Source: Dickeya chrysanthemi NCPPB 402 (GTDB taxonomy: Bacteria > Pseudomonadota > Gammaproteobacteria > Enterobacterales > Enterobacteriaceae). From it: 64,000 nt of DNA. Location: NCBI RefSeq assembly GCF_000406105.1, contig NZ_CM001974.1, positions 1,457,286 to 1,521,285 of the forward strand, written 5' to 3'. The notes under the pieces are model-generated. The model was not told where the DNA came from. It saw only the letters and a list, made by a program, of their open reading frames with translations, and did not search any database. Below, piece after piece: positions 32,180-59,969 of the stretch. The translations under genes and the position numbers were made by a program. Each line of letters starts with the position of its first letter. Position 1 is the stretch's first letter.

Positions 32180-34824
32180 GCGGCTGCCGCACCACCTGTC
32201 CTTACTGCGGCGTGGGTTGCGGAGTGATTGCCACTGCGCAACCGGACGGGAGGGTGACCATTGAAGGCGACAGCCGGCACCCGGCCAATCAAGGGCGGTT
32301 GTGCGTCAAAGGTTCGGCGCTCGGCGACACGCTGAGCCTGCAAGGGCGGCTGTTGTGGCCGCTGGTTGACGGGCATCGTGTCGGTTGGGAGCAGGCGCTG
32401 GACCGGGTCGCGCAGTCGCTCGGCGATATCATTGCGCAGCACGGCCCGCAGGCGGTGGCGTTTTACGGTTCAGGGCAGTTGCTGACTGAAGACTACTACG
32501 TCGCCAACAAGCTGATGAAAGGATTCATCGGCAGCGCCAACATGGACACCAATTCCCGGTTGTGCATGGCTTCGGCGGTTATCGGCTACAAACGGGCGCT
32601 GGGCGCCGATGCGGTGCCGTGTAACTACGAGGATATCGAGCAGGCGGATCTGGTGGTGCTGGTCGGCTCCAACACCGCCTGGGCACACCCGGTGGCGTAT
32701 CAACGGCTGATGCAGGCCAAACAGCAGCGCCCGCACATGCGGGTGGTGGTGGTGGACCCACGCTGGACCGCCACCTGCGATGCGGCGGACTTACATCTGC
32801 CGCTGGCGCCCGGCAGTGATGCCGGGTTGTTCAACGGATTGCTGCGCTGGCTGGCGCAGCAGAACGTGCCGCCGCCCGACGCGCTTAGCGGGGTGGAGGC
32901 GGCGCTGGCGGCCGCCGATGAGTGGACGCCAGAGCGGGTAGCTGAATTCTGCCGGTTACGGCACGAGGACGTGGCCTGCTTCTACCAGTGGTTCAGCGAG
33001 ACCGACAAGGTGGTGACGCTCTATTCGCAGGGCATTAACCAGTCTGCGTCCGGCAGCGACAAATGCAACGCGATTATCAACGCGCATCTGTTCAGCGGCC
33101 GTATCGGCCGGGCCGGATGCGGTCCGTTTTCGATTACCGGTCAGCCGAATGCGATGGGTGGCCGTGAAGTGGGCGGGCTGGCGAATCAACTGGCGGCGCA
33201 CATGGGGTTTAGCCCGCAAGAGGTGGCGCGGGTCGGCCGTTTCTGGGGCAGTGACCGGGTTGCGTCGGCACCGGGGCTGATGGCGGTGGATCTATTCCGT
33301 GCCATCGAAGCCGGGCAGGTGAAGGCGGTGTGGGTAATGGGCACCAACCCGGTGGTGTCTATGCCGGAAGCAGACCGGGTGCGGCAGGCGCTGTTGCGTT
33401 GCCCGTTGGTGATCGTCTCCGACGTAATGCGCCACACCGACACCACGGAATGTGCCGACATCCTATTGCCGGCGCTGGCGTGGGGGGAAAAAGACGGCAC
33501 GGTGACCAATTCTGAACGGCGTATTTCCCGCCAGCGTGCATTCCTGCCCGCGCCGGGCGAAGCGAAGGCAGACTGGTGGATTGTGTCGCAGGTCGCAACA
33601 CGTATGGGGTTCGGCGACGCATTTGATTACCGCCATCCGGCGCAGATCTTTCGTGAACACGCCGCCTTGTCCGGGTTTGAGAATCAGGGCCAGCGCGCTT
33701 TCGACATCAGCGCGCTGGCGATGCTCAGCGATGAGCAATGGCAACAACTTGCCCCGGTGCAGTGGCCGGTGACCACGCATGCCGATGGCGGTACCGCACG
33801 GTTGTATACCGACGGTCGCTGCTGGCATCCGGACGGTAAGGCGCGGCTGCTGGCAATCACCCCGCAATTGCCGGTCAATCCACCGTCGCCGGCGTATCCA
33901 CTGGTGCTCAATACCGGCCGGGTGCGTGACCAGTGGCACACCATGACCCGCACCGGCAAGGCCGCACGCCTGATGCGGCATCTGCCGGAACCTTACTGCG
34001 ACCTGCATCCGCAGGATGCACTAAACGCCGGCGTGCATGATGGCGAGCTGGTGCGCATCAGCGCCGGTTCGGGCTGGATGCTGGCGCGGGCGCAGGTCCA
34101 ACGCGGTCAGCAACTCGGCAGCATTTTTGTTCCTATGCACTGGAACCGGCAGTTCAGCACACAGGCGCGTGTCGACAGCCTGGTCGCGGCGGTGACCGAT
34201 CCCTATTCCGGGCAGCCGGAAAGCAAACAGTCGCGGGTACGCATTCAGCGCTGGCCCGCCGTCTGGTTCGGCGAGCTGTTTGTCCGCGGCGACGCGGCAA
34301 CGCCGGACTGCGGCTACTGGAGCCGGATTACCGCCGACGGGGTGTCGCATTACGTGATTGCCGGCGAACGCACGCCGGAACACTGGCTCGACTGGCTGAC
34401 CCGGCAATATGACCTGAGCGACGTTGAATTTCAGCAGGCGCAGGGGGATGACCGGTTGTTTCATGCGGTTGGCTGGCAGGGCGAGCAGGTCGCCGTGGCG
34501 CTTTATGTGGGGGCGCATCGTCCGCAACTGGCGCGTGAGGCGGTGCTGGCGGCGTTTGCCTCGCCGCCGCAACATACGCCGGACAGACTGGCATTGCTGG
34601 CAGGTTGTGCGCCGCAGGGGGAAATACCGCAGGGTGCGACCATTTGCAGCTGTTTCGCGGTTGGTGAGCAGCGCATTGTCGATGCCATCCGTCAGGGCTG
34701 TCACAGCGTGGCGCAACTGGGGGAACACCTGCAATGCGGGACCAATTGCGGGTCCTGCATACCGGAACTGAAGGCGTTGCTGCAACAGTATGCGACGCCG
34801 GATACATTGCGTCGGGCGGGCTGA
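32176..34824 (+). CDS. nasA: Assimilatory nitrate reductase catalytic subunit
   Basis: Cytoplasmic molybdopterin enzyme reducing nitrate to nitrite. The N-terminal [4Fe-4S] motif is CPYCGVGCGV with a later CVKG. The molybdenum region contains DTNSRLCMASAV, and MGTNPVVSMPEADRV and GQPNAMGGREVGG are family hallmarks. The last 60 residues add a BFD-like [2Fe-2S] domain (ICSCFAVGE, CGTNCGSCIPEL), as in Klebsiella NasA. It has 882 residues. The start ATG overlaps the nasB stop (ATGA), so the two reductases are translationally coupled. Electrons probably come from the NasC module of the upstream fusion. Confidence 0.96.
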   Translation: MSGCRTTCPYCGVGCGVIATAQPDGRVTIEGDSRHPANQGRLCVKGSALGDTLSLQGRLLWPLVDGHRVGWEQALDRVAQSLGDIIAQHGPQAVAFYGSGQLLTEDYYVANKLMKGFIGSANMDTNSRLCMASAVIGYKRALGADAVPCNYEDIEQADLVVLVGSNTAWAHPVAYQRLMQAKQQRPHMRVVVVDPRWTATCDAADLHLPLAPGSDAGLFNGLLRWLAQQNVPPPDALSGVEAALAAADEWTPERVAEFCRLRHEDVACFYQWFSETDKVVTLYSQGINQSASGSDKCNAIINAHLFSGRIGRAGCGPFSITGQPNAMGGREVGGLANQLAAHMGFSPQEVARVGRFWGSDRVASAPGLMAVDLFRAIEAGQVKAVWVMGTNPVVSMPEADRVRQALLRCPLVIVSDVMRHTDTTECADILLPALAWGEKDGTVTNSERRISRQRAFLPAPGEAKADWWIVSQVATRMGFGDAFDYRHPAQIFREHAALSGFENQGQRAFDISALAMLSDEQWQQLAPVQWPVTTHADGGTARLYTDGRCWHPDGKARLLAITPQLPVNPPSPAYPLVLNTGRVRDQWHTMTRTGKAARLMRHLPEPYCDLHPQDALNAGVHDGELVRISAGSGWMLARAQVQRGQQLGSIFVPMHWNRQFSTQARVDSLVAAVTDPYSGQPESKQSRVRIQRWPAVWFGELFVRGDAATPDCGYWSRITADGVSHYVIAGERTPEHWLDWLTRQYDLSDVEFQQAQGDDRLFHAVGWQGEQVAVALYVGAHRPQLAREAVLAAFASPPQHTPDRLALLAGCAPQGEIPQGATICSCFAVGEQRIVDAIRQGCHSVAQLGEHLQCGTNCGSCIPELKALLQQYATPDTLRRAG

Positions 34825-34851
34825 GCCGCGCCCGGATTAAGGAGTGACAAC

Positions 34852-35679
34852 ATGAACCCTACTCTGAATACGCTGATGGCGCGTGGCCATCAACGCCAGC
34901 CGCTGCTGGCAGGCGATGTCTGGCTGGTGGGGGCCGGTCCGGGCGACGCCGAATTACTGACTATCAAAGCGCTGAGGGCGATTCAGCAGGCGGATGTGGT
35001 GGTGCATGACCGGCTGGTTTCCGCCGATATCATGGCGTTGTTACAACCGGAGACCTTGCGCATCGATGTCGGCAAGCAGCAGGGCAACCACGCGCTGCCG
35101 CAACCGCAAATCAATCAACTGTTGATGGAACTGGCGCAAGCCGGGCAACGCGTCGTGCGCTTAAAAGGCGGCGACCCGTTTATTTTCGGGCGCGGCGGCG
35201 AGGAGATGGATTATCTGCATCGGCAGGGCGTCCGTTGCCATGTGGTGCCGGGGATTACTGCCGCCACCGGTTGTGCGGCGGCGGTAGGGTTGCCGTTGAC
35301 GCACCGGGATTGTGCCCAGTCGGTACGATTTATCACCGGCCATGCCCGTGACGGCGAGCCGCAACTGGACTGGGAAACGCTCGGCGCAGGCCAGCAAACG
35401 CTGGTGTTTTATATGGGGCTGAGTCATGCCAGCCGTCTGTGCCAGAAGCTCATGGCTCATGGCCTGCCCGCCGGTACGCCGCTGGCGATTATCGAGCGGG
35501 GGACGCAGCCGGAACAACGCGTGATGACCGCGACGCTCGCGACCTTGCCCGCGCTGATGGCACGTTATCAACCGCAGTCGCCCAGTTTGCTGGTGGTGGG
35601 GGAAGTGGTGCGTTTTTGTCGCTATCCGGCGCTGACGGTGGCCAGCGAAGCGCTGATGAAGGTGGGAACGGCGGCATAA
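34852..35679 (+). CDS. cobA: Uroporphyrinogen-III C-methyltransferase
   Basis: SAM-dependent enzyme making precorrin-2 for siroheme, the cofactor of the upstream nitrite reductase. Tetrapyrrole methylase motifs are [42 protein letters not shown] and [19 protein letters not shown]. It has 275 residues and lacks the N-terminal oxidase/ferrochelatase half of CysG, so it needs a separate CysG or Met8-type enzyme to finish siroheme. AAGGAGTGACA precedes the ATG, 27 bases after nasA. It is the last gene of the nas operon; an imperfect hairpin (35684-35708) follows. Confidence 0.93.
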
Positions 35680-35724
35680 GCGACTGCCGCCCGACAGTGG
35701 GCGGTAGCCTGATGAAAGGATGTG

Positions 35725-36270
35725 TTATCTTCTGAGCCCGATCTCATCGACCAGCGCATTCATTTGCCCGGCGATCAGAACGGTGATGTTTTCATCTTTC
35801 AGGTTGCCTTGCTCGTCGAAACCACCGGCAAAGGCGTTAGCGAAGACTTCCGGCTTGTTCAACACATGAATATTCAGGTAGACGCAACTCTGGCGTAAAT
35901 GATACTGCGCCCGCGAGGTGCCCATACCGCCGCCGGCTCCCATCAGCGCTGCCGGTTTGCCGCTCAGAATGGTGGTATCCGGCAGGCGGGATAACCAGTC
36001 CAGAATATTTTTCAGTGCCGGCGCCATCGAATAATTGTATTCAGTACAGGCAAACACGAAGCCATCCGCCTCACTGGCTTGATTGGCGATGCGTTGTACA
36101 GACTCAGGTACTTCGGTCAAATCGGCGTTATAAAACGGTACATCCAGCAGGTCGGCAATCTCCAGCGTGGCATACGCGGGCAGTACCGACTGCGCGGCAC
36201 GCAACAATCCCCGGTTGGCAGAGGCTTTGCGCAGGCTGCCGACAATACCTAATAATTTTATTTGATTCAT
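35725..36270 (-). CDS. NADPH-dependent FMN reductase
   Basis: Flavodoxin-fold NAD(P)H:FMN/quinone reductase (YieF/ChrR-like). The FMN phosphate loop is GSLRKASANRGLL near the N-terminus, and EYNYSMAPALKNILDWLSR is the family signature. AAGGACAACACC before the ATG supports the start at MNQIKLLGIVGS; a longer frame upstream has no ribosome site. It has 181 residues. It converges with the nas operon and has no clear functional link to it. Probable role: quinone or xenobiotic reduction. Confidence 0.88.
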   Translation of the reverse strand: MNQIKLLGIVGSLRKASANRGLLRAAQSVLPAYATLEIADLLDVPFYNADLTEVPESVQRIANQASEADGFVFACTEYNYSMAPALKNILDWLSRLPDTTILSGKPAALMGAGGGMGTSRAQYHLRQSCVYLNIHVLNKPEVFANAFAGGFDEQGNLKDENITVLIAGQMNALVDEIGLRR

Positions 36271-36460
36271 GGTGTTGTCCTTTTTGTGTGAAAAGAAAAT
36301 CACCAGGATAACGTCGGCGCGCACTGCGTCGTCGTTTGTCCCTGACTCGTCATAGCATAGAGCGTGGGGGGAAAATTGCCATGTCAATAATGTGAGGTTG
36401 CACTTAATATGATGCCCTTACTGGAGCAATCGACTTGTTATAAGGGCATGATTAAGCGGA

Positions 36461-37468
36461 TCAGTCAAATAGCGGTATAGGATGAAAATTATCAATAACC
36501 AATGAGGAACTTATTTTCATTTCATTCAGTATACGAGTAGCTAACGCAATATCCAGCATACCCATACCAAAGGGTGAATATATCCTTGGGCGCTGATAAT
36601 TCGGTATGACTGATCCTTTGATCAAGTCGGCAATATTACCTTTTATGAAGTCGGTTCTCCCGCTAGCTTCTTGTGCTATATGTAAAGACGTTTTTGCCTT
36701 TACAGCATGATTGTGATCATCAACATAATTGTCAGCATTCAAAATAACATTTTCACCCAGATCCCTGAGTGAAATATGTAACAGTGTTGGGTTGTGAGAG
36801 AATAGGTTATGATCGTGGATATGTGGCGCCACTGCTGATGTAGCAAAAACAATCATATCCGAGCGTGTAATAGTATTGGCTATTGTTGCTGACTCAACGG
36901 GTATATTGGTCATTGACTGGCATTTATCTATAAAGGATGAGCACTTATCGTGAGAAGTATCATTAACGAGAATGTTTTTAATACTCCATCCTGAGTTCAG
37001 AAAGTACTCCAGAATATGAAAAGAGATAAGGCCAGTTCCAATGATACCGAGACGCTCGATATGATTTTTCTTATCATGCAGATATTCAGCTCCGGCAACT
37101 GCAGATGCTGCGGTTCTGATGGCGCTTATTTGGCTGCCTTCGATGCATGCGATAGGATACCCTGTTTTCCTATCATTCAGGATAATAACGGCCGAAGCCC
37201 GATTCAGCCCATCTTTAAGGTTCTCTGGGAAACTGCTTATCCATTTGATACCACAACTGCCTTCATCGGTGTTGATGGATGCTGGTAAAGCTATGATTCT
37301 GTTTTTTTCACTATCAGGGAATCGAAGGAAATAGCTGTCAGGGTTGGTTATTTTTCCATCATGAAATAAACAGTAACTTTCTTTCACGATAGTTGATATT
37401 TCTTTTTTGTTTTTTGATAGCCATGAGTGTACATCAGCTGATGTGATGACATAAAAATCATTTTTCAT
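36461..37468 (-). CDS. sbnB: 2,3-diaminopropionate biosynthesis protein SbnB-like
   Basis: Ornithine cyclodeaminase/mu-crystallin family protein of the SbnB type. In Staphylococcus, SbnB oxidatively cleaves N-(1-amino-1-carboxy-2-ethyl)-glutamate to L-2,3-diaminopropionate and 2-oxoglutarate with NAD. Seen here are GIKWISSFPENL, ACIEGSQISAIRTAASAVAG, the Rossmann motif IIGTGLISFHILEYF and SLRDLGENV. It has 335 residues. It begins 7 bases after the sbnA stop with GAGGT as ribosome site, so the two are translationally coupled. Composition is clearly more AT-rich than the nas genes, suggesting horizontal acquisition. Confidence 0.85.
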   Translation of the reverse strand: MKNDFYVITSADVHSWLSKNKKEISTIVKESYCLFHDGKITNPDSYFLRFPDSEKNRIIALPASINTDEGSCGIKWISSFPENLKDGLNRASAVIILNDRKTGYPIACIEGSQISAIRTAASAVAGAEYLHDKKNHIERLGIIGTGLISFHILEYFLNSGWSIKNILVNDTSHDKCSSFIDKCQSMTNIPVESATIANTITRSDMIVFATSAVAPHIHDHNLFSHNPTLLHISLRDLGENVILNADNYVDDHNHAVKAKTSLHIAQEASGRTDFIKGNIADLIKGSVIPNYQRPRIYSPFGMGMLDIALATRILNEMKISSSLVIDNFHPIPLFD

Positions 37469-37475
37469 TTTTACC

Positions 37476-38410
37476 TCATTGGTAATATTGGTTTACCCAG
37501 TCAGGGTTATATATTGTGTCAAGATATTTATCTCCCATATCAGGAGATATAGCCACCACTGTATCCCCCGGATTTATCCGGTCTTGCATTAAGCGAATGG
37601 CAGCCAATACGGTTCCAGTTGATCCACCTAAAAGTAACCCATGCCTGGAAAGGTCATGGCATGCTTGTATAGTAGCGGCTTCATCTACATAGATTAACTC
37701 ATCAAATACTGAGTATCTTCGAATATCAGGTGGATAGCTTGTACCCAATCCCGGGATCCTTCTTTTTGCACTGCAACCACCAAATGTAATAGAGCCATAT
37801 GTGTCAACGGCGATTATTTTTGTTGATGGCGAATGTTCTTTTAAATAGCGGGATACTCCACCCAATGTTCCGGTGGTACCCGCTCCGATAAAAACATAAT
37901 CGGGATTTGATATTTTCTGAAGAATATGCCTTCCAGTTGTATAATAATGGGCGTTAACATTATTTTTGTTTTCATACTGATTTATCCAAATAATATTACT
38001 ATCGTTTTTTATTTTTCTTTTATATGGGCTATTCTGGTCCCAAGATAACCGCCTTGGTTATCTCTCTCGGTTACCGTAATCAGCTCTCCACCATAAGCTG
38101 CTATAGTTTTTGCTGCAACAGGAGACATATTGGGATCTCCGACGCAAATGAAAGTATACCCTTTCCATGCACAAATCATACTTAATGCAATGCCAAGATT
38201 TCCTGATGAACTTTCGATAATTTTATTGCCCTTCTTTAATATCCCTCTACGTTCAAGCTCTTCAAGCATATAAAGTGCCGGCTTGATTTTAATCGATCCG
38301 CTAACAGATAACCCTTCTATTTTTAAAATGATATCTCTGTCATTTATCCATTCTTTTAATGTCAAAAAGCAATCGTCTTGAATAAGAGGTGATATGTCAT
38401 TAAAGAGCAT
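37476..38410 (-). pseudogene. sbnA: SbnA-like 2,3-diaminopropionate synthase, one-base frameshift
   Basis: PLP-dependent cysteine-synthase-fold enzyme that joins O-phosphoserine and glutamate in diaminopropionate synthesis. Frame 1 (38410 down to 38009) contains the PLP lysine region GSIKIKPALYMLEEL and ESSSGNLGIALSM, and ends prematurely after RIAHIKEK. The protein continues in another frame through NIIWINQYENKNNVNAHYYTTG, VFIGAGTTGTLGGV and AVDTYGSITFGG to 37476. Adding one A to the A5 run at 38012-38016 restores one frame of about 311 residues. So it is either recently inactivated or a sequencing deletion. No start-to-stop intact copy is present. Confidence 0.85.
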
Positions 38411-38681
38411 AAATTATTGTTCCAGCAGTAGTTAAGTGAGTAATTTATTCATCTAATAGAATTAGTACTCGTAAAAGAGTGATGATTCAAATTAAACGTA
38501 ATATCTTTTATCTATAAACGAATTTAAAATTATTTAATTTTAGAATAAGTATTTTAATCAATGGCTTATTTTTTATTTTTAAATTGAAATGCAGTTGTTT
38601 ATATGTAATTTTGTTTTTAGATATAAATTATTGTCATAAGTTATTTATATTTCAAAACTATTATTTTTTGGTGGGTATAAT
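38411..38681. promoter_or_regulatory. AT-rich divergent promoter region of the sbn/formyltransferase islet
   Basis: The 271 bp between sbnA and the formyltransferase gene are very AT-rich and must carry both divergent promoters. I looked for a Fur-box-like 19-bp palindrome, since sbnAB often serve siderophores, and saw none. TATAAT occurs directly before the formyltransferase ATG, within its ribosome-site region. Confidence 0.4.
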
Positions 38682-39494
38682 ATGTATGCTTGTTTAACGG
38701 AAACTTTTTTCCATACCAGCTTTCTTTGTGATAAGTTATTCTCACATGGAATGTGTTGGATCGTGAGGAATGTAAGAGGATTAGATTTTCAGGAGGTTAA
38801 TGCTATCCACAGTAAACTATGTAGAATGAAAAATTTAACGGAAAAAGATCTTCAGGATTTGTCAGTAGCATACAAGGGATTGAGTGAGTCAGAAATATAC
38901 CTTGCCAGACATTATGGTGTACCTGAGCGACATGCACTGGCTGTGTCTGATCGCGTGGAGGTAGCCGATTTTTCAGATCTGGCTTTGGAAAGGATTCATG
39001 ATCGTATCAGGGAGAACAATGTATTTGGGGCGGTGATTTTTCTTGATGCGATATTAAGTGATACATGGTTGGACTTTTTTCATCATCGTGTTGTCAATGC
39101 ACATTCTGCGGTACTACCTTATGCAAGAGGCATGTATGCCATTGAACAACTGGCTATTTGTGGTAAAACGGATAAAATGCAGGAAGCAGCAGGCGCAACC
39201 CTCCACTATGTTGATTCCGGCATTGATACGGGAAAAATTATTCATATAGAGAGATTAAGCCGGTTATGGGAAATGGAATCGATATGGGCGGTAAAAGGAG
39301 AGTCTTATTTGCTGGCGTTTGATTTGTTAAAAAAATATCTCGATTCTGAAAGAAAATTCTCTCAGGTAGATACAATCTCCTCTCCGACGGCCCATGAAAG
39401 TCCATTATTCCTTAGCCGCGATTTCACCGAAGAGCGAAAAAAATTATCAGAAAAAACATTTCTCTTAATGAAAGAGGCAATAAACCATGCTTGA
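38682..39494 (+). CDS. Formyltransferase-domain protein
   Basis: Member of the 10-formyltetrahydrofolate-dependent formyltransferase superfamily (Fmt/PurN fold), 270 residues. The catalytic Asn-x-His is in VVNAHSAVLPYARGM, and the Asp is in HYVDSGIDTGKII, so the active site appears intact. Its N-terminus is atypical, and it lacks the Fmt C-terminal tRNA-binding domain, so it is not the housekeeping Met-tRNA formyltransferase. It resembles sugar- or amino-acid-N-formylating enzymes. It overlaps the exporter gene by 8 bp and is divergent from sbnAB. A plausible acceptor is an amine made by SbnA/SbnB; that is inference. Confidence 0.8.
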   Translation: MYACLTETFFHTSFLCDKLFSHGMCWIVRNVRGLDFQEVNAIHSKLCRMKNLTEKDLQDLSVAYKGLSESEIYLARHYGVPERHALAVSDRVEVADFSDLALERIHDRIRENNVFGAVIFLDAILSDTWLDFFHHRVVNAHSAVLPYARGMYAIEQLAICGKTDKMQEAAGATLHYVDSGIDTGKIIHIERLSRLWEMESIWAVKGESYLLAFDLLKKYLDSERKFSQVDTISSPTAHESPLFLSRDFTEERKKLSEKTFLLMKEAINHA

Positions 39495-40124
39495 TGTTAA
39501 CTGGCTATTATTCTTTGCGGCAAGTTTGACTATTAACGCTATACCAGGGGCAGATGTAGTGTATGTTACTGGAAACTACCATCGTTCCGGTTGGCCTGCT
39601 GCCTCGTTGTCTGCCTTGGGGCTGGCGTTGGGTTACTACTTTTACGTATTTATTACATGGCTTGGAGTAACAGCCGTAATTTTTTCTTTTCCCGCATTTT
39701 ACACGCTGATTCAATTGGCCGGTGCAATATATTTATTATGGATGGGATATGATATTTATCGATCCAGACCTTCAGGTGTCCGTGGTGATAGTGAAAGTCA
39801 AGTGATCGGTAATGCTCGTTCTTTTTTGATGAATGGATTGGTCATCAGCATACTTAATCCTAAAGTCGGCGTATTTTTTGTCTCTTTTTTCCTCAATTTA
39901 TCAATAAAAGCAGCCCAAGTTATCTGATCCTGATATTGGGGACGGTTTTTTGTCTGGGTGCGACATTTTTCAATATCTTCTACTGTTTTCTTACGGCACA
40001 ATTAAAAAGACTATCCACAGGGCGTGTGGATTTTCTTTTGGGTACAGTACCGGGGGGGATTCTGATGTTACTGGGAGGCTGGATGATCTATGGTGCATTA
40101 AGCAGTTATATGAGCCGGTTGTGA
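39487..40124 (+). pseudogene. LysE/RhtB family amino-acid exporter, one-base frameshift
   Basis: Inner-membrane exporter of the LysE superfamily. The N-terminal part has SLTINAIPGADVVYVTGN and LAGAIYLLWMGYDIYRS, typical RhtB features. After NPKVGVFFVSFFLNLSIK the frame runs into a stop at 39925-39927. The continuation SSPSYLILILGTVFCLGATFF to SSYMSRL is in another frame, ending 40124. Adding one A to the AAAA run at 39906-39909 rejoins them to about 212 residues, the normal family length. It is translationally coupled to the formyltransferase by an 8-bp overlap. Presumed role is export of the islet's product; it is disrupted as written. Confidence 0.82.
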
Positions 40125-40213
40125 AAAATCAATTTATCTGGCGGGATAAATATCAGGAGGTTTTGCCGGTGTGAGCAATACTCTAAGGCTCTTGTTTATC
40201 AATACCGTTAAAA

Positions 40214-40250
40214 ACAAAGCCCGTGCCACCTGGCACGGGCTTTGTCGTTT
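40214..40250. terminator. Bidirectional intrinsic terminator
   Basis: Perfect 14-bp inverted repeat ACAAAGCCCGTGCC (40214-40227) with its complement (40232-40245) and a 4-base loop. On the minus strand it is followed by TTTTTAACGG, so it ends the binding-protein transcript. On the plus strand it closes the lysE side. Confidence 0.9.
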
Positions 40251-40292
40251 CTTTATCATCGTTCCGGTTGCTGTAGCCGCGAGAAGCGGCGA

Positions 40293-41069
40293 TTATTGCA
40301 CCCGCACGTCGAAGCCGGGGAAGTATTGCTTCGCCAGTTTCTCGACGGTGCCGTCGTCTTTCACCTGTTTGATGGCTTTGTCCAGTTCGGCTTTCAATGC
40401 GGCGTCGCTTTTACGCAGGCCGAAACCGATGCCGCTGCCCAGAATCGCGGTGTCTTCCACCGGCCCGCCGATAAAGGCGAAACCTTTGCCTTCCGGCTTA
40501 TCCAGAAAACCGGATTGGCCTGCCGCCGCCATCACCAGCGTACCGTCCAGACGGCCTGCCGCCAGATCGTCATAGGCCAGATTTTGATCTTTGTAGCTCG
40601 TCACCGTCACGCCTTTCGATTCCCAGTGCGCCTTGGCATACACTTCCTGAATCGAACCCTGCAACACACCGATATTTTTGCCTTTCAGTGCTTCGGCCGT
40701 CGGTGCCAGACCGGTATTCGGTTTGCCGACTAATTGGGTGGGAATACGGTAAATCGGCTGGGTGAAGTCGATCGCTTCTTTACGCTTTTCCGTGATGTTC
40801 ATTGCGGAGTTGATGGCGTCGAACTTTTTGGCTTGCAGTGCCGGGATCAGCGCGTCAAAGGAGGCTTCTACCCAACTGCACGTGAAGTTGCCGGCCTTAC
40901 AAATGGCGTTGCCCAGATCGATATCGAACCCTTCCAGTTGCCCTTTGGCATTTTTGCTTTCAAACGGCGGATATTCCGCTTCCAGACCAAAACGCAATTC
41001 GCTTTGCGCCAGTGCAACGGAAGAGGACAACAACCCTAGTGACAACATCAACATGCTTAGTTTTTTCAT
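40293..41069 (-). CDS. Periplasmic amino-acid ABC substrate-binding protein (ArgT/HisJ-like)
   Basis: Type 3 solute-binding protein for basic amino acids. A Sec signal ends near SSVALAQ. The mature N-terminus reads ELRFGLEAEYPPFESKN. The family motif GFDIDLGNAICK follows, then SFDALIPALQAKKFDAINSAMNIT, with the ligand-contacting region FTQPIY. It has 258 residues. No permease or ATPase gene is adjacent, so it probably works with a transporter encoded elsewhere. Lysine, arginine, ornithine or histidine are the likely ligands. Confidence 0.88.
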   Translation of the reverse strand: MKKLSMLMLSLGLLSSSVALAQSELRFGLEAEYPPFESKNAKGQLEGFDIDLGNAICKAGNFTCSWVEASFDALIPALQAKKFDAINSAMNITEKRKEAIDFTQPIYRIPTQLVGKPNTGLAPTAEALKGKNIGVLQGSIQEVYAKAHWESKGVTVTSYKDQNLAYDDLAAGRLDGTLVMAAAGQSGFLDKPEGKGFAFIGGPVEDTAILGSGIGFGLRKSDAALKAELDKAIKQVKDDGTVEKLAKQYFPGFDVRVQ

Positions 41070-41207
41070 AGTGGGAACGATCTCCGGTAAATCAATCAGT
41101 AGTGTTCAAACGTTATCATCAAACAACCGTAGTCCTCGGGGGCCAATCAGGTACGGCATCGTTATTCGCAATACGCACTCATATTCGCAATGATCACACA
41201 ACGCCGA

Positions 41208-42383
41208 TTAACGGTGCGAGCCCGTTACCTGACATAAGGCTTTTGCGCCCGCCAGTAGCGTAGCGTCATCTTTAGAGAATGAAAGACGGATCAGCTTATT
41301 GTCGGTGCCATCGGTGTAAAACGCCGAGAGCGGAATGGTCGCCACACCGTGGTCGACGATCAGGCGTTTAACCATGTCGCCGTCGCTCTCATCGCTGAAG
41401 TGCGCGAAGCTGGCCAGTATGAAGAAGGAACCGGCGGAGGGTAGCAGCTCAAAGGGGCTGCCCTGCAACGCCTGCGTGAGCAGATCGCGTTTTTGTTGAT
41501 AGAACTGGCCCAGCGACAGATAGGTCGCCGGGTCCGCCATGTATTCGGCAAAGGCGTATTGCATCGGCGTATCGGCGGAAAACATCATAAACTGGTGGAT
41601 TTTGAGGATCTCATCCATCAGCGCTGCCGGAGCCAGGCAGTAACCGACGCGCCAGCCGGTAACGTGAAACGTCTTGCCAAACGACGAAACGATAACGCTG
41701 CGCGCCGCCAGCTCGCTGTGGGTTGCCATGCTGTGGTGGCGTTGCCCGTCAAAGACCACGTGTTCGTAGACTTCGTCGGACAGGATCACGATATCGGTGT
41801 TGCGCGTCAGGCGCGCCAGTTGCGCCAGGTCATCGGCGCTCAACACCTGACCACTCGGGTTATGGGGCGAGTTAATGATAATCATGCGGGTGCGCGGCGT
41901 GATGGCGGCCTGCACTTCGTCCCAATCGATGTTAAACCCCGGTACCGCCAGTTTCAGCGCAACCGGGGTTGCGCCTTGCAACCGTACAATCGGCGCGTAG
42001 CTGTCAAAGGAGGGTTCGAAATAAATCACCTCATCACCCGGATGCACCAGCGCAGAAATGGCGGAATAGAGCCCTTCGCTGGCACTGGCGGTGATCGTCA
42101 CTTCCTGCCCGGCGTCATAATGCTGGCCGTACAAACGCCGCACTTTTTCCGCCACCACTTCTTTTAGCGATACCAGCCCGGACATCGGGGCATATTGATT
42201 ATGACCTTCGGTCATGGCGCGGGTCACCCCGGCGATCAACTCAGGGGAACACGGAAAACTGGGCGCGCCTTGCGACAGATTGATGGCATGATGCTGACTG
42301 GATAACTGGCCAATAACGGTGAAAATGGTGGTTCCGACATCCGGTAATTTGGAACTAAACCGCACCGGGGTGTGAATCGGCAT
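41208..42383 (-). CDS. ybdL: Methionine aminotransferase (YbdL family)
   Basis: PLP-dependent class I/II aminotransferase. In E. coli YbdL uses methionine, histidine and phenylalanine, and it may salvage 2-oxo-4-methylthiobutyrate. Motifs seen are LSQGAPSFPCSPEL, NQYAPMSGLVSLKE, INSPHNPSGQVL and SDEVYEHVVFDG. The Schiff-base lysine lies in SSFGKTFHVTGWRVGY. The start MPIHTPVRFSSK has CGGAGAT upstream. It has 391 residues (386 in E. coli). A run of MetJ-like boxes lies just upstream, which would suit a methionine-metabolism gene. Confidence 0.9.
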   Translation of the reverse strand: MPIHTPVRFSSKLPDVGTTIFTVIGQLSSQHHAINLSQGAPSFPCSPELIAGVTRAMTEGHNQYAPMSGLVSLKEVVAEKVRRLYGQHYDAGQEVTITASASEGLYSAISALVHPGDEVIYFEPSFDSYAPIVRLQGATPVALKLAVPGFNIDWDEVQAAITPRTRMIIINSPHNPSGQVLSADDLAQLARLTRNTDIVILSDEVYEHVVFDGQRHHSMATHSELAARSVIVSSFGKTFHVTGWRVGYCLAPAALMDEILKIHQFMMFSADTPMQYAFAEYMADPATYLSLGQFYQQKRDLLTQALQGSPFELLPSAGSFFILASFAHFSDESDGDMVKRLIVDHGVATIPLSAFYTDGTDNKLIRLSFSKDDATLLAGAKALCQVTGSHR

Positions 42384-43613: not shown

Positions 43614-43905
43614 TGCAGCCAGGGTTCACACAGCCTGACCTGGCCTGCGTCGAAATCGACGCTCACACCGATGCCGAGCGGTAGGGTCAACATCGGGTGG
43701 GTGTGGCAACAGTCGAAATCCGCCAGTACCGGCAACGGTTGCCCGTCAGCGCACCGGCGCGCAGCCGATAACCGTGCTGTTCAAGAAAGGTTTTTGCCCG
43801 GTCAAACCGTGCCGGGGCAAAGTGTGTCGCTGGTGAGGAGGGCGAAAAGAAACCGATCGTGTCGCCCGGGCGCACCGGTGCAGGCAGTAACAGAGTATGA
43901 AACAT
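43604..43905 (-). pseudogene. S66 LD-carboxypeptidase/MccF-like gene with large internal deletion
   Basis: The N-terminal 50 residues read MFHTLLLPAPVRPGDTIGFF...SPATHFAPARFDRAKTFLEQHGY, typical of the S66 family (LdcA/MccF). Directly after ALTGN the homology jumps, in another frame, to the family's last 45 residues (PVLADFDCCHTHP, MLTLPLGIGVSVDFD, ending EPWLHQP). About 200 codons, including the catalytic Ser, Glu and His, are missing. So this is a deletion remnant that cannot encode an active enzyme. MccF-type members protect against microcin C, so the loss may matter for peptide-nucleotide sensitivity; that is speculative. Confidence 0.8.
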
Positions 43906-44285
43906 AAATTTCTTTCTCCGAACAGGTGTCACAAAGGGTGATATTCAATCATAAGAATTTCTTTTTAATTAGCGGCCACGATAAAAAATAATTACTGACG
44001 TTTTTTTATAAATGGCTGACTTCAATAACATCAATAACGTTTCTCATGCGAAAAGTGGGTTACCGCCATGCAATTCTTCTTTTGAAACGCTATTCCATTC
44101 TATTTTGTGCGCCGGCTAAGAAAATTGCTAACCTTCTGTCATTACAAGGTTTTATATATAGTTCATTTCCTGTTTTCGTACAGACAACGCAAAAATACGC
44201 CGCCCGGCCTGGCGAATGCGGGATAACGGTATTGTCACTCGAAACATAACAACAGACGACATTACACAGCACAGGGTTAGTAGCC
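43906..44285. other. AT-rich region upstream of the chemoreceptor gene
   Basis: No supported gene. It should carry the chemoreceptor promoter. I looked for a flagellar sigma-28 promoter (TAAA-N15-GCCGATAA) and did not find a good match. Confidence 0.45.
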
Positions 44286-48158: not shown

Positions 48159-49406
48159 CTAGCTTCGGGCCATGTGTCGGGTGTAGGCATCGTGCACGGT
48201 GGTGACGATCTGCTCGCAGACGGCCTGAGTAGGAACACATTGCTGCCGGGTACGTCGACAATTTTCCGCAATATCGGGATCGTCCAGGATCTGGCGTAAT
48301 TTCTCATCCAGGTTGTCGATATCGCTGTCTTTAAGCCATGTTCCGCATTTCATGGCGGTGACCCGGCGAGCGTTGTCGAACTGATCAAAGGCACTGGGAA
48401 TAACCAGTTGAGGGATGCCGGCCGCGAAAGATTGCGCCATGGTGCCAATGCCGCCATGATGGAGAATGGCGGCGCACTGATGCAGGTATTGACTCAGGTT
48501 GATATGTCGCTCGACACGAATGCCGTCATCGTCGGCTAAATGGTGGTCTAGTTGGCTGATGATCAGACATTGATAACCTCGTTGGCGGGTTTTTTTGACC
48601 AGAGAGACGATCAATTCCCGCTTAGTGCTCAATGCCCAGCTCGGCATGAAAATCACGGTAGGCGCACGTGCAATGAAGCGTGCCAACTCATCATCTTGCT
48701 GGTTATCCAGCAAATTAAATAATGGAAAACCCACCTGACGGACATGAGCCGGCCAGTCTGGCAACGGGGAGGCAAACCATTCCGGGAACAGGCATAGCAA
48801 AGCCGAATCTGAATGATGCGTCCATGATGTCAGAATGCGTTCGATACGCGGTAACTGTAGCTGGCTTCTGAAGTTGTTGATAAAGGGCGCCAGTGTACGG
48901 TCAACCAGGTATTTCTCGACAAAATACAAAAACAGGCGGCGCAGACTTATCGGCAGTCGCCGACTCCATGCCAACTGACGATGCTGGGGCGGATCGTAAC
49001 TGGAGATAAATGTTGAAGGTGTAACACGGACGGGAATGACGCAGCAGCCATGGGTTTCACTGAACATCTTAGCGGAGAACGACCACAGTGATGTGAGGAT
49101 GACTGAAGAGCTGTCTACCCATGGTTCCAGCGCGTCATAGGCCGGTTTTTGCTGCGCATTCATGTAATTAACCATTTCATTGAAGGCGGAGCGTTGATGC
49201 CATAATCGTTGTGAATTAACCGTACGTAAATACTCTTCGCTACTGCCAACCGGAATAAAATGAAGCCCTCTTTCCTTTGCCGTTTTCTCAAAATATGGAT
49301 TAGTACAAAGGTAAACCTCTAATCCTGCATTCTTTAATGCTTCTCCTATTAAGATGAATGGATAAACATCTCCGGCAGAGCCAAGTGTGGATAAAAATAT
49401 CCTCAT
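48159..49406 (-). CDS. Glycosyltransferase, UGT/GT1-like (RhlB or MGT type)
   Basis: GT-B fold glycosyltransferase of 415 residues. The N-terminus MRIFLSTLGSAGDVYPFILIG is the acceptor-domain signature of the GT1/GT28-like UGT superfamily. The C-terminal donor-site region reads AAILHHGGIGTMAQSFAAGIPQLVIPSAFDQFDNA, split here as HHGGIGTMAQSFAAG and PQLVIPSAFDQFDNA. GGAGGG lies five bases before the start. Relatives include rhamnosyltransferase RhlB and macrolide or carotenoid glucosyltransferases. No lipid or polyketide genes are beside it, so acceptor and donor remain unknown. It is flanked by a cysI relic and an AT-rich gap. Confidence 0.82.
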   Translation of the reverse strand: MRIFLSTLGSAGDVYPFILIGEALKNAGLEVYLCTNPYFEKTAKERGLHFIPVGSSEEYLRTVNSQRLWHQRSAFNEMVNYMNAQQKPAYDALEPWVDSSSVILTSLWSFSAKMFSETHGCCVIPVRVTPSTFISSYDPPQHRQLAWSRRLPISLRRLFLYFVEKYLVDRTLAPFINNFRSQLQLPRIERILTSWTHHSDSALLCLFPEWFASPLPDWPAHVRQVGFPLFNLLDNQQDDELARFIARAPTVIFMPSWALSTKRELIVSLVKKTRQRGYQCLIISQLDHHLADDDGIRVERHINLSQYLHQCAAILHHGGIGTMAQSFAAGIPQLVIPSAFDQFDNARRVTAMKCGTWLKDSDIDNLDEKLRQILDDPDIAENCRRTRQQCVPTQAVCEQIVTTVHDAYTRHMARS

Positions 49407-54364: not shown

Positions 54365-54502
54365 GATTTATCTCCTGTCTGTTGGTGCATTTAGCGGATA
54401 TCACAAATATTAATGTAATGAATATAGTCACTTGTAATATCGCGACACCGAACCGCAACATGTTTTTTTATGATGATGATTAAAATCAAAAATACGACAT
54501 CT

Positions 54503-54522
54503 TTGATTATGAGTGACATCAA
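54503..54522. promoter_or_regulatory. Operator site 1 (TTGAT-N10-ATCAA), TetR gene promoter
   Basis: TTGATTATGAGTGACATCAA, 46 bp upstream of the TetR regulator start. It shares TTGATTATG...ATCAA with sites at 55488, 57026 and 57060, so it is the likely autoregulatory operator. Confidence 0.7.
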
Positions 54523-54568
54523 TGTAGAATATAGGGCTGAGTATTTACGCATAGAGGGGATGGCTAAC

Positions 54569-55138
54569 ATGAAAGTCACCAAAGCACAGGTGCAGGCGAA
54601 CAGAGCACATATCGTCGAAACAGCTTCGATGTTATTCCGGGAAAAAGGCTACGACGGCGTAGGCGTGGCGGATCTCATGGCGGCGGCGGGCTTCACCCAT
54701 GGCGGATTTTACAAACATTTCGACTCCAAAGCCGATCTGATGGCGGAAGCGGCTGCATGCGGTTTTTCACAATCCGAAATAAAAATGGATGGGGTAGAGA
54801 TTGTCGATTTCGTCAAGCATTATCTTTCGCGGGAACACCGGGATGGACGAAATAAAGGCTGTACTATGGCCGCTTTGTGTAGTGATGCCGCTCGTCAGAA
54901 TGAAACGATTAAAGCGACATTTGCTGAAGGTATAGAAAGCCAACTCTCTCTGTTAGGTGGTGGAAATGTCGCTGATGGCAATGTGGATATGCGGACAAAA
55001 ATTATCAACACATTAGCTCATTCAGTAGGTGCAGTCATTTTGTCACGATCCTGTCCTGATGACTCGCCACTGGCAGACGAAATTCTGGACGTTTGTTGCC
55101 GGGAGATTCTTTCGCGGTTGGCATCAAAAGATAGCTAA
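54569..55138 (+). CDS. TetR/AcrR family regulator
   Basis: TetR-type repressor, 189 residues. The HTH is in IVETASMLFREKGYDGVGVADL with AGFTHGGFYKHFDSKADLM. The C-terminal ligand domain ends in CCREILSRLAS and contains NKGCTMAALCSDAARQ, like YcdC/NemR-related regulators of electrophile responses. AGGGG lies nine bases before the chosen ATG; an ATG nine bases earlier sits on that site. The predicted operator recurs before the downstream quinone oxidoreductase and OYE genes, so it probably represses them and itself until a reactive electrophile is present. Confidence 0.87.
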   Translation: MKVTKAQVQANRAHIVETASMLFREKGYDGVGVADLMAAAGFTHGGFYKHFDSKADLMAEAAACGFSQSEIKMDGVEIVDFVKHYLSREHRDGRNKGCTMAALCSDAARQNETIKATFAEGIESQLSLLGGGNVADGNVDMRTKIINTLAHSVGAVILSRSCPDDSPLADEILDVCCREILSRLASKDS

Positions 55139-55487
55139 TTAGAAAAAGCGATATTGCGCGCTCACTCCGATAAATCCCATTGACGGCACCGGCTTTTGAC
55201 CGGTGTGCGCAGTCCCTGATGAGTCATTTCTTGTAGTTATAAAGAGACTGTGTTGAGGTGGATATTGATGCATTAAGCGCGCTACTGTTATCTGGAACGT
55301 TCGCAATTAGCCCTGCATGTCCACTCGCCATAAAGACGACAAAAAATAATTAATTTAAAATAAAACAAAGAGTAAGCTTTCTCTTTCGTTCTCGTTGAGG
55401 GCGTACTAGCGACTTCGTCTCTGCTGGTATTTTCCGTGGTTAACCAAAGTAAAGATGACGGTCATCATTTTATTTTTTTACGACAGT
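55139..55487. other. Gene-free spacer between TetR gene and operator 2
   Basis: No supported gene. It contains short hairpins (ACCGGCTTTTGACCGGT near 55188 as a possible terminator of the TetR gene) and a palindrome GATGACGGTCATC at 55454-55466 close to operator 2. Confidence 0.45.
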
Positions 55488-55507
55488 TTGATTATGATCG
55501 ACATCAA
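55488..55507. promoter_or_regulatory. Operator site 2 (TTGAT-N10-ATCAA), quinone oxidoreductase promoter
   Basis: TTGATTATGATCGACATCAA, same motif as sites 1 and 3. It lies 158 bp upstream of the quinone oxidoreductase start, so the leader would be long or the promoter displaced. Confidence 0.65.
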
Positions 55508-55665
55508 TGTATAGTGATGATACGACCTGAACGCAGCAGCATTAAATGAACATCCTGGTGATTAGCATGTCTCGGCGTTGTTCAACTGACTCCATATTGA
55601 TTGCATACAAAAATTGTGTTTATGCAGCATAAGGTTAACCAAAATCCCTATAGGTGATGACGAAT

Positions 55666-56667
55666 ATGAAAGCACTCATGTTCAAGGAATATGGCAAGGC
55701 CGATAGCATTACATTCTACGAAATTCCGGTTCCTGAAATTCAGCCGAACGACATTCTTGTGAAGGTTCACGCGGTAGGGCTAAACCCAATCGATTACATG
55801 ATCCCAAAAGGAACATTTAAGCCGGTGCTTAAGTTTGCTCTCCCCGCCACAGTTGGCAGCGATCTTGCGGGAGTGGTTGAATCAGTTGGCAGCCGTGTAA
55901 CTCGTTTCAAACCGGGAGACGCCGTTTTTGCCAGCATCTTCGATATGGGTATAGGGGCACTGGCAGACTTTGCTGTTGTTCCCGAAAGGGCGGCAGCGCA
56001 CAAACCCGTAAACCTCGACTTTGTGCAGGCTGCTTCCATTCCCATGGTAGGACTCACATCATGGCAGGCGTTAAAAGAACGTGCACACCTGAAGCCAGGG
56101 CAAAAGGTTTTCATACCAGCGGGTTCAGGTGGGATTGGATCGTTTGCTATTCAACTGGCTAAACAACTTGGTGCAACGGTAGGTACAACGACAAGTACGG
56201 GCAATCTGGAGATGGTTCGGCGTTTGGGAGCGGATGAAATAATAGATTATAAGAAGCAGGAGTTTGAGGATATTTTACAAGGTTATGATGTAGTGCTTGG
56301 GACGGTGAGAGGCGACCATATTCAGAAGTCGCTCAATATATTAAAACCCCATGGCCGTGTTGTATCGCTAATCGGTCCTCTTGATGCAGCCTTTGCCCAT
56401 GCACGAGACATGAATTTTCTGATGAAATTTATCTTTAAGCTGATGAGTTGGAAAATTATCCGTCTCGCTAAAAAGCGGGACATACAGTATTCATTCCTGT
56501 TTGTACATACTGATGGTATGCAGCTCGAAGAGATCTCTGAATTTCTTGAGGCAGGAAAGATTCATCCTGTAATTGATAAGGTATTTTCATTTGAGGATGC
56601 CAAACAGGCGCTGGCGTATCTTGAAACTGGTCGGGCCAAGGGAAAGGTGGTCGTTAAACTGATATGA
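55666..56667 (+). CDS. Zinc-independent quinone oxidoreductase (MDR family)
   Basis: NADPH-dependent medium-chain reductase of the quinone oxidoreductase type, 333 residues, reducing quinones or activated alkenes. The N-terminal GroES-like domain has VHAVGLNPIDYMIPKG and LPATVGSDLAGVVESVG. The Rossmann motif is FIPAGSGGIGSFAIQLAKQLGA. No catalytic or structural zinc cysteines are present. The start MKALMFKEYG has AGGTGA eight bases upstream. It lies downstream of the TetR gene, with a shared operator motif. A terminator-like hairpin follows at 56737-56757. Confidence 0.9.
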   Translation: MKALMFKEYGKADSITFYEIPVPEIQPNDILVKVHAVGLNPIDYMIPKGTFKPVLKFALPATVGSDLAGVVESVGSRVTRFKPGDAVFASIFDMGIGALADFAVVPERAAAHKPVNLDFVQAASIPMVGLTSWQALKERAHLKPGQKVFIPAGSGGIGSFAIQLAKQLGATVGTTTSTGNLEMVRRLGADEIIDYKKQEFEDILQGYDVVLGTVRGDHIQKSLNILKPHGRVVSLIGPLDAAFAHARDMNFLMKFIFKLMSWKIIRLAKKRDIQYSFLFVHTDGMQLEEISEFLEAGKIHPVIDKVFSFEDAKQALAYLETGRAKGKVVVKLI

Positions 56668-56736
56668 AACATTATTCATGAATATATCTTTTAAATAAAA
56701 ATAGACCTCAACTCATTCGAATTTTGGAAAAAAGTG

Positions 56737-56760
56737 CGAGCCGTTTTGAACGGCTCGTTT
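56737..56760 (+). terminator. Terminator-like hairpin after quinone oxidoreductase gene
   Basis: Perfect 9-bp stem CGAGCCGTT / AACGGCTCG with a 3-base loop, followed by TTT. The rest of the gap to 57025 has no supported gene. Confidence 0.65.
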
Positions 56761-57025
56761 GGTATGGCGCAACCGCTAAAGCGGAGCGTTAAGCGAATTC
56801 GCTGTATCAGTAAGCTATTCAAATAGCGTCGGCCTAATTAAACAGGCTGACGCCTCTCATCTCATTCTGACATATTCAGAAACCTGCCTTTGCATTGAAA
56901 AGTACTTTTTGAAGGAAAGTTTACGCGGGCTCTCGCCGTGCTTTAACCATATCCAGGCGCTAAATTGTGTGTTGTTTATTTTATAAATAATTGATTTTAA
57001 AGTTTAAATTATCGTAAACAATTTA

Positions 57026-57079
57026 TTGATTATGATTGTAATCAATGATGTTGACTTTATTGATTATGGTTGTCATCAT
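57026..57079. promoter_or_regulatory. Operator sites 3 and 4 at the OYE promoter
   Basis: Two motif copies 34 bp apart: TTGATTATGATTGTAATCAA (57026-57045, perfect outer palindrome) and TTGATTATGGTTGTCATCAT (57060-57079). TTGACT at 57051-57056 lies between them as a possible -35 box, so repressor binding would cover the promoter. The OYE start codon is 33 bp further. Confidence 0.75.
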
Positions 57080-57112
57080 AAATGAACGATACAAAACAGG
57101 AAGGAAAGTAAA

Positions 57113-58203: not shown

Positions 58204-58283
58204 TAACAGCGAGTATTTTGATACTAATTTGCTGTGAAATATTACTTATACCAAATTCATTTCAATATTAGAGAGATATAAAT

Positions 58284-59066: not shown

Positions 59067-59219
59067 CTGTAAGAGTGTAGTGGGGCTTAGCAGCCAGGCG
59101 GAAATTTGATCAAACTGCTGAGATGAAATGAGAAAAGATGGGGAATCAGATGTTTTCGTTTAAGCGAAACGCTGCCTGCTGACGTACTACCAATTGACTC
59201 CTGCATGGTTTTTTTAAAG

Positions 59220-59246
59220 ATTTCGTGCGCCCACTGCGCACGAAAT
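59220..59246. terminator. Perfect hairpin downstream of the SDR gene
   Basis: 11-bp perfect stem ATTTCGTGCGC / GCGCACGAAAT with a 5-base loop. The T-run (TTTTTTT at 59209-59215) lies upstream, so on the minus strand the hairpin precedes... A-rich/T-rich order suited to a minus-strand terminator; on the plus strand it is only a structure. Confidence 0.4.
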
Positions 59247-59259
59247 TACAAGCCAACCA

Positions 59260-59772: not shown

Positions 59773-59818
59773 ATATTACTTCCGGTAACGTAGCAGAAGC
59801 CTCACGCCTCATGGGATG

Positions 59819-59956
59819 CTCGTCATACTTCACGTTGCAGGTGCGTTGGCTTTCTTACTCGGCCCATCAATGGGCCTCGCCCTACGAGCCAACGCGTTGC
59901 GTTATTCAAAACGCAACGCGTGGTGTTGTCCTGCAGCTCGAATTATTTTGGGTATA
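59819..59956. repeat. ERIC-like element with a different core
   Basis: The ends match ERIC arms (CGTCATACTTCACGTTGCAGGTGCG at left; CTGCAGCTCGAATTATTTTG then GGTATA at right). The core is not the ERIC core: it contains GGCCCATCAATGGGCC and ACGCGTTGCG...CGCAACGCGT palindromes. About 138 bp. A decayed relative is at 19302-19377. Confidence 0.7.
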
Positions 59957-59969
59957 ATTGTGATAAGAG

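What the first reader, a model, noticed from the sequence alone, without database searches (positions are those of the whole stretch)
36461..40124. Candidate undescribed small-molecule islet: sbnA-sbnB divergent from formyltransferase-LysE exporter
Seen: two AT-rich divergent pairs share one 271-bp promoter region. sbnA/sbnB are coupled, and formyltransferase/lysE overlap by 8 bp. Known: SbnA and SbnB together make L-2,3-diaminopropionate in Staphylococcus. LysE-type proteins export amino acids, and formyltransferases of this fold formylate amines from 10-formyl-THF. Inference: the islet could make and export an N-formylated diaminopropionate or similar amino-acid antimetabolite or signal. There is no NRPS or siderophore synthetase nearby, which separates it from the known siderophore and antibiotic uses of sbnAB.
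Basis: partly seen in the sequence, partly recalled or inferred. Interest (0 to 1): 0.75.

Follow-up and report, generated by a model that had tools for sequence, protein, structure and literature searches.

The report
Broken copy of formyl-amino-acid cassette
A small set of genes that looks able to build an unusual amino acid (2,3-diaminopropionate), add a formyl group to it and pump it out recurs in unrelated bacteria, but in this strain two of its four genes are frame-broken.

Summary
Layout as described: sbnB and sbnA diverge from a formyltransferase (FT)-lysE pair across a 271-bp, 19% GC gap. Intact forms exist in Dickeya records. The combination is real: of 20 named FT loci examined, 5 have sbnA and sbnB nearby: Xenorhabdus bovienii and X. 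stockiae (same divergent layout), two Pseudoalteromonas, Brevibacillus laterosporus. Among eight loci compared, only these genes and, in five, a serine-kinase-like (SerK/SbnI) gene recur. SbnA beside this FT comes from more than one SbnA lineage (p-AU 2.5e-9, group chosen after a first tree), suggesting re-pairing. Best reading: a self-contained route from phosphoserine to DAP, N-formyl-DAP and export, working like the last two steps of the FVG (gvg) cluster. Product and formylation site are inferred. Against: 14 of 20 FT loci lack both sbn genes; four of nine whole genomes searched have FT but no SbnB, one of them with FT-lysE. The site is a swap locus: empty in one congener, a decayed islet in another, a different FT-plus-exporter islet in two. 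Five literature searches aimed at the cassette or product found no description (open-licence papers only).

The parts
36461..37468 (-). sbnB, NAD-dependent dehydrogenase that releases DAP from the SbnA product, 335 aa, open frame
   Evidence: TIGR03944 364.8 bits over cut-off 326.9; best PDB match 4m54, E 7.6e-29 (that 4m54 is S. aureus SbnB is recalled)
37476..38057 (-). sbnA, C-terminal piece in its own frame (gene broken)
   Evidence: TIGR03945 232.1 bits, profile 129-304
38009..38410 (-). sbnA, N-terminal piece in another frame (gene broken)
   Evidence: TIGR03945 138.8 bits, profile 3-129; intact database form P0060, 311 aa
38411..38681 (.). 271-bp shared divergent intergenic region, 19% GC
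   Evidence: promoter-like hits in 36380-40260 are no more than in shuffles
38682..39494 (+). small-molecule formyltransferase, 270 aa, open; N139/H141/D182 invariant in the 24 rows of A1 (window plus 23 of 58 hits)
   Evidence: PF00551; alignment A1; A1 profile is best in PDB with PurN 3p9x, E 3.8e-14
39487..39927 (+). lysE, N-terminal piece (gene broken)
   Evidence: PF01810 4.4e-20, profile 2-125
39864..40124 (+). lysE, C-terminal piece in another frame
   Evidence: 93% to the C part of intact D. oryzae LysE P0181; no family hit on its own
40214..40245 (+). terminator-like hairpin at the right flank
36384..40209 (.). extent of the islet by comparison with the empty site in congener G007 (L137)
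   Evidence: flanks 34800-36383 and 40210-41112 match L137 with about 120 bp between them

Best explanation
The islet is a decayed copy of a small accessory pathway. As inferred for intact copies: O-phosphoserine (from serine biosynthesis, or made by a free serine kinase encoded in some cassettes) is joined to glutamate by SbnA; SbnB oxidises the adduct to L-2,3-diaminopropionate (DAP); the FT moves a formyl group from 10-formyl-THF to an amine of DAP, most likely the side-chain amine; LysE exports the product, which also protects the producer. N-beta-formyl-DAP would be a glutamine analogue close to albizziine. Shown by sequence here: gene families, the conserved N-H-D columns of the FT, linkage, a serine-kinase-like gene in several cassettes, and the frame breaks in this strain's sequence. 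Inferred: substrate, formylation site, product, export, biological role.
For: FT with sbnA and sbnB nearby in 5 of 20 named FT loci (L002, L003, L006, L007, L009), plus part of sbnA in a MAG (L018). The SbnA proteins scanned (6 of 6) and SbnB proteins scanned from other loci (3 of 3) pass their curated cut-offs. Among eight loci compared (ORFs of 90 aa or more, E 1e-8), only FT, LysE, SbnA, SbnB and the kinase-like gene recur, apart from one ABC-type ORF family in three of them. The five kinase-like proteins, as one profile, match SbnI (2.8e-14 to 4.3e-14) and free serine kinase (9.1e-13 to 1.8e-11) structures; one of them alone matches free serine kinase at 1.1e-5 but SbnI only at 0.33. FT and lysE are within 4 bp or overlap in six genomes. 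A clade of Dickeya, X. bovienii and X. stockiae-type SbnA is rejected (p-AU 2.5e-9), so FT-LysE seems to have been re-associated with SbnAB. FVG precedent: GvgI formyltransferase is postulated as the last step, and at least one of the LysE proteins GvgJ/K is required for export and survival (passages of PMC8067088).
Against: No biochemical data. FT occurs with no SbnB match in whole genomes of X. szentirmaii, L. quercina NCCB 100490, L. iberica and G356; in G356 FT-lysE stands without sbnAB. 14 of 20 FT loci have neither sbnA nor sbnB in the stretch held; 11 of the 14 are distant FTs (31-37%) and some contigs are short. In the FT tree, sbnAB linkage needs 3 changes over 12 labelled rows, and 93 of 500 shuffles do as well. 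The AU group was chosen after a first tree, and unlabelled SbnA rows may themselves be FT-linked. Brevibacillus and the MAG are divergent. Three of four kinase-like proteins had no Pfam match and the fourth only ParB_N; none was seen in the X. bovienii stretch or the window genome (a search without a positive control).
Confidence: 0.52

Rival explanations
1. The FT acts on a different amine, or on a product built from DAP by unlinked enzymes; DAP is only one building block and LysE exports that other product.
For: FT without SbnB in 4 of 9 whole genomes. Related FTs sit in other settings: beside NRPS-like genes (read by eye) in Solihabitans (L012) and beside other genes in cyanobacteria.
Against: Among eight loci compared only the cassette genes recur, so no further linked partner is seen; SbnA seems to have been re-paired with FT-LysE.
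Confidence: 0.25
2. Formylation is self-protection: the active exported compound is DAP itself, and the FT masks intracellular DAP.
For: LysE-type proteins export amino acids (established knowledge). That free DAP is harmful to cells is recalled; one search listed no paper that I read on it.
Against: FT and lysE are the coupled pair and diverge from sbnAB, which fits formylation followed by export; FVG precedent.
Confidence: 0.1
3. The islet in the window strain is intact and the two frame breaks are sequencing errors in AT-rich runs.
For: Both breaks lie in T-rich stretches of the sequence as read by eye. Database protein P0060 matches the two sbnA pieces at 100% and 99.4%.
Against: None of 19 orthologous backbone ORFs (18 genes) in the compared stretch is broken, although they are richer in GC. 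A congener (G002) holds a plainly decayed remnant at the same site, so decay does happen here.
Confidence: 0.35
4. Chance neighbours: sbnAB and FT-lysE are independent islet cargo.
For: SbnAB is common without FT: 217 of 72,556 plasmid records match SbnB and none matches the FT; sbnAB beside NRPS-like genes in L139-L141 (by eye). FT-lysE without sbnAB in G356.
Against: Adjacency in three gammaproteobacterial genera in two layouts, and FT-sbnA-sbnB in a Bacillota species.
Confidence: 0.06

Closest known systems
FVG (4-formylaminooxyvinylglycine) gvg cluster, Pseudomonas fluorescens WH6 / Pantoea ananatis BRT175
   Same: Small pathway for a free, exported non-protein amino acid; formyltransferase (gvgI) followed by LysE exporters (gvgJ, gvgK); formylation is postulated as the last step (passages of PMC8067088 and PMC8064604)
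   Different: gvg has a regulator, carbamoyltransferase, aminotransferase, amidinotransferase, esterase-like and haem-oxygenase-like genes, and no SbnA/SbnB in the part of the gene table seen. GvgI sequence was not compared here
Staphyloferrin B sbnA-sbnB(-sbnI)
   Same: SbnA, SbnB and, in several cassettes, a SerK/SbnI-like protein
   Different: No siderophore synthetase recurs among the loci compared; FT and LysE instead
NRPS-type DAP clusters (here L139-L141; dapdiamide-like is my reading of L139)
   Same: SbnA/SbnB homologues (39-46% identity)
   Different: Neighbours read by eye as ATP-grasp, adenylation, amidotransferase-like or NRPS genes; no FT or LysE match within the stretches
PurN, glycinamide ribonucleotide formyltransferase
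   Same: Catalytic region and N-H-D columns align
   Different: 41.9 bits against a cut-off of 150.1, with the match confined to residues 124-190; the genome has its own PurN at 255.6 bits

Membership tests
SbnB (TIGR03944) | whole protein over curated cut-off | tested here: met
   364.8 vs 326.9 bits
SbnA (TIGR03945) | whole protein over curated cut-off, as encoded in the window | tested here: not met
   two pieces, 138.8 and 232.1 bits against 349.95; the intact database form P0060 passes at 384.6
LysE translocator (PF01810) | domain over gathering score and full-length open frame | tested here: inconclusive
   N piece 72.4 bits over 25.6, but the gene is in two frames
Formyl_trans_N superfamily (PF00551) | domain over gathering score; catalytic Asn-His-Asp | tested here: met
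   40.9 vs 26.1 bits; N139, H141, D182 in 24 of 24 rows of A1; that these are the catalytic triad is recalled and fits the PurN alignment
PurN (TIGR00639) | score over cut-off | tested here: not met
   41.9 vs 150.1 bits
Sugar N-formyltransferase (NF005755) | score over cut-off; O-antigen locus | tested here: not met
   22.8 vs 238 bits; by eye the neighbours are nitrate/nitrite assimilation, a siroheme-type methyltransferase, an FMN reductase and a solute-binding protein
gvg/FVG-type pathway | gvgI orthologue with carbamoyl- and aminotransferase genes | tested here: inconclusive
   no such genes are among those that recur between cassettes; GvgI itself was not compared
Staphyloferrin B-type siderophore cluster | NIS synthetase with sbnAB | tested here: not met
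   no such gene recurs among eight loci and none was noticed by eye in translations near the islet; no dedicated NIS model search was run
N-formyl-DAP pathway | FT formylates DAP; product exported | not testable with these tools
   needs enzymology and LC-MS

The most novel reading that the evidence does not exclude
A minimal, NRPS-free natural-product pathway (in its fullest form serine kinase, SbnA, SbnB, formyltransferase and LysE) makes and exports free N-beta-formyl-2,3-diaminopropionate, a glutamine-mimicking antimetabolite or signal. It is shared by plant-associated Dickeya and Lonsdalea, insect-associated Xenorhabdus and Pseudoalteromonas, with a Brevibacillus version. The DAP-making half has been swapped under a constant FT-LysE half.
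Probability: 0.42. Interest if true: 0.75.

Novelty: new variant of a known kind. Interest (0 to 1): 0.57.

Why it matters
If the reading holds, it adds a small class of free amino-acid metabolites, with a predictable product, that genome-mining built around NRPS or siderophore synthetases could overlook. It would also make the FT-LysE pair a usable search handle for similar antimetabolite cassettes, and give DAP a fate outside peptides and siderophores. In Dickeya it shows a chromosomal site where different islets come and go, two kinds of which carry a formyltransferase and an exporter.

Tried and rejected
Structure prediction of the FT (alignment A1) was tried 12 times and always met a busy machine, so no fold comparison exists. 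No Rfam match at gathering threshold in 35500-41500. Promoter-like sites are not above shuffles (11 against a mean of 14.6). The FT has no match in 72,556 plasmid records at E 1e-5. I dropped the ideas that the FT is PurN or a sugar formyltransferase and that the islet is a siderophore or NRPS remnant. A first frame-shift control that started from the window's own long ORFs is biased towards unbroken genes; I replaced it with the reverse comparison. Of 9 answered paper searches, 5 were aimed at the cassette or its product and gave no description in their listings; one search returned 0 papers for five spellings of formyl-DAP. The other 4 were for FVG, SbnI, albizziine and DAP toxicity. The library holds open-licence papers only, and one cassette-aimed hit (PMC12858407) was checked by passages and concerns NRPS clusters.
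Full report
What is there. The window lies in a 4.70-Mb genome of 21 contigs whose nearest database relatives in the islet are Dickeya (FT 88% to a D. zeae record; intact SbnA and LysE records named D. zeae, D. dianthicola and D. oryzae). The four genes are 38-42% GC in a window of 56%.

sbnA lies in two frames: its pieces hit adjoining parts of the SbnA model, 3-129 and 129-304. lysE is split as well (pieces matched to an intact LysE). sbnB and the FT are open. Intact forms exist in the databases: P0060 (311 aa, matching the two sbnA pieces at 100% over 133 and 99.4% over 181 residues), P0061 of D. zeae, and LysE P0180 and P0181 of D. dianthicola and D. oryzae. P0060 is listed without a source, the tool's sign for a protein that the window encodes, yet the window as given does not encode it in one frame. 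As a control, 22 ORFs of at least 180 aa from the matching stretch of a congener were compared with the window: 20 matched; one of these is a paralogue; the other 19 (18 genes, one cut in two by my fetch boundary) lie in one frame, one of them running off the window edge. So breaks concentrate in the islet, but its AT-rich runs leave sequencing error possible.

The site. In 9 of 9 genomes of the genus the neighbouring methyltransferase gene is present; the FT is in 1 of 9 and SbnB in 2 of 9, the window's and G002. At the same site, G007 (L137) has the flanks with about 120 bp between them. G002 (L136) keeps a broken part of sbnB and short traces of sbnA and lysE. G005 and G006 (L131, L132) hold a different AT-rich islet. 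G008 and G003 (L133, L134) hold other genes between the same flanks, and G004 and G001 (L135, L138) hold other genes next to the left flank, the right flank not being found in the 9 kb fetched. The islet was therefore present in at least two species of the genus and is being lost or swapped.

The set elsewhere. Of 20 named FT loci with tblastn E of 2e-27 or better (L002-L021), 5 have both sbnA and sbnB in the stretch held: Xenorhabdus bovienii and X. stockiae (same divergent layout), Pseudoalteromonas sp. CIP111854 and P. luteoviolacea (co-directional FT-lysE-kinase-sbnA-sbnB) and Brevibacillus laterosporus (kinase-FT-sbnA-sbnB, with an EamA-like exporter, read by eye, on the other strand). 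One, a Burkholderiales MAG (L018), has a partial sbnA directly followed by the end of an FT, and a lysE further on. 14 have neither. In a family sample, SbnB matched in 6 of 391 genomes at E of 1e-30 or better: G000, the remnant in G002, G377 (same contig as the genome behind L002), and G020, G022 and G065. The FT matched in 41 of 391 at E 0.001, but only 6 below 1e-60: G000, G377, G356, G227, G124 and G297. Among eight loci compared (window 26001-52000, L002, L003, L006, L007, L009, L018, L111) only the four genes and the kinase-like gene recur, apart from an ABC-type ORF family in three of them.

The kinase. Small ParB-fold proteins in the X. stockiae, two Pseudoalteromonas, MAG and Brevibacillus loci, aligned together, match SbnI (5uje 2.8e-14) and free serine kinase (5x0b 9.1e-13) structures. 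Alone, the L006 protein matches free serine kinase at 1.1e-5 and SbnI only at 0.33; in Pfam, of four tested, one hit ParB_N and three nothing. SbnI makes O-phosphoserine for staphyloferrin B (title seen in the reference list of PMC12704722). That is the substrate of SbnA (established knowledge), which supports DAP synthesis as the function of these cassettes. The window genome shows no match to the Pseudoalteromonas kinase (without a positive control).

Evolution. In the FT tree the enterobacterial FTs, including Dickeya, Xenorhabdus and Lonsdalea, form one group (21 rows, 100/99); sbnAB linkage needs 3 changes over 12 labelled rows, and 93 of 500 shuffles do as well. In the SbnA tree, Dickeya and X. 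bovienii SbnA are sisters (99/97), while X. stockiae SbnA lies among other SbnA proteins; holding these together is rejected (p-AU 2.5e-9). That tree used 52 of the 128 rows, and both rows and test group were chosen after seeing that tree. Two rows (P0138, P0162) are called FT-linked only because their contig lengths equal those of FT records, and the linkage of unlabelled rows is unknown. The simplest reading is that the DAP-making half was exchanged while FT-LysE stayed.

Results against. FT occurs without an SbnB match in whole genomes of X. szentirmaii, L. quercina NCCB 100490, L. iberica and G356 (4 of 9 genomes searched); in G356 FT-lysE stands without sbnAB. Of 72,556 plasmid records 217 match SbnB and none the FT, so SbnAB does not imply FT. 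An L. quercina record set (P0004 FT, P0182 LysE, P0162 SbnA) shares a longest-contig length of 378207, which suggests, but does not show, linkage there.

Mechanism. By established knowledge SbnA and SbnB turn O-phosphoserine and glutamate into DAP. The FT keeps N139, H141 and D182 in the 24 rows of A1 (the window plus 23 of the 58 hits) in the region that aligns with PurN, but scores far below the PurN and sugar-formyltransferase cut-offs; the genome has a separate PurN. FT and lysE are within 4 bp or overlap in six genomes. In the FVG cluster the formyltransferase is postulated as the last step, and at least one of two LysE proteins is required for export and survival (passages of PMC8067088; PMC8064604). 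I therefore infer N-formyl-DAP as product, likely on the side-chain amine, exported by LysE. Its likeness to glutamine and to albizziine (carbamoyl-DAP) is a structural argument from general knowledge (albizziine papers seen as listings only).

Verdict. A real, conserved small cassette, frame-broken in this strain; product unproven. Papers: passages seen in PMC8064604, PMC12704722, PMC11350110, PMC12858407 and PMC8067088; all others as search listings only. The searches aimed at the cassette or product listed no description of it.

Noticed in passing
L131:1384-6368 and L132:2720-7799 (congeners G005, G006), same site as the islet: A different AT-rich islet: DUF84 NTPase, HAD hydrolase, amidohydrolase, a full-length PurN-like formyltransferase and an MFS exporter (Pfam on the L131 genes), next to a partial second copy of the solute-binding-protein gene. 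A second formyltransferase-plus-exporter islet at one site.
   Followed up: partly
L133:4746-7264, L134:3726-7445, L135:1831-3015, L138:1801-8999: Genes for proteins of about 290-490 aa, several beginning alike with a signal-like stretch, lie at or beside the same site in four other congeners; the one scanned (L133:6089-7264) had no Pfam match.
   Followed up: no
L018:6818-7617: In a Burkholderiales MAG the N part of SbnA is directly followed by the C part of an FT, as if the middle of the cassette were deleted; lysE lies further on.
   Followed up: no
L017:235-5474 and L021:6287-10483: Two cyanobacterial relatives of the FT follow the same three genes, the first read by eye as amidinotransferase-like (L017 has one more gene before the FT); possibly another small-molecule pathway.
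   Followed up: no
window 54470-60863: Another stretch of low GC (42-50%) with a TetR-type regulator, zinc alcohol dehydrogenase, short-chain dehydrogenase and a metallo-beta-lactamase-fold protein.
   Followed up: partly
window 48159-49406: A glycosyltransferase of the EryCIII/GT28 type at the edge of a low-GC stretch.
   Followed up: no
window 43687-43932: A short ORF that reads like the start of an LD-carboxypeptidase, possibly broken (judged by eye).
   Followed up: no
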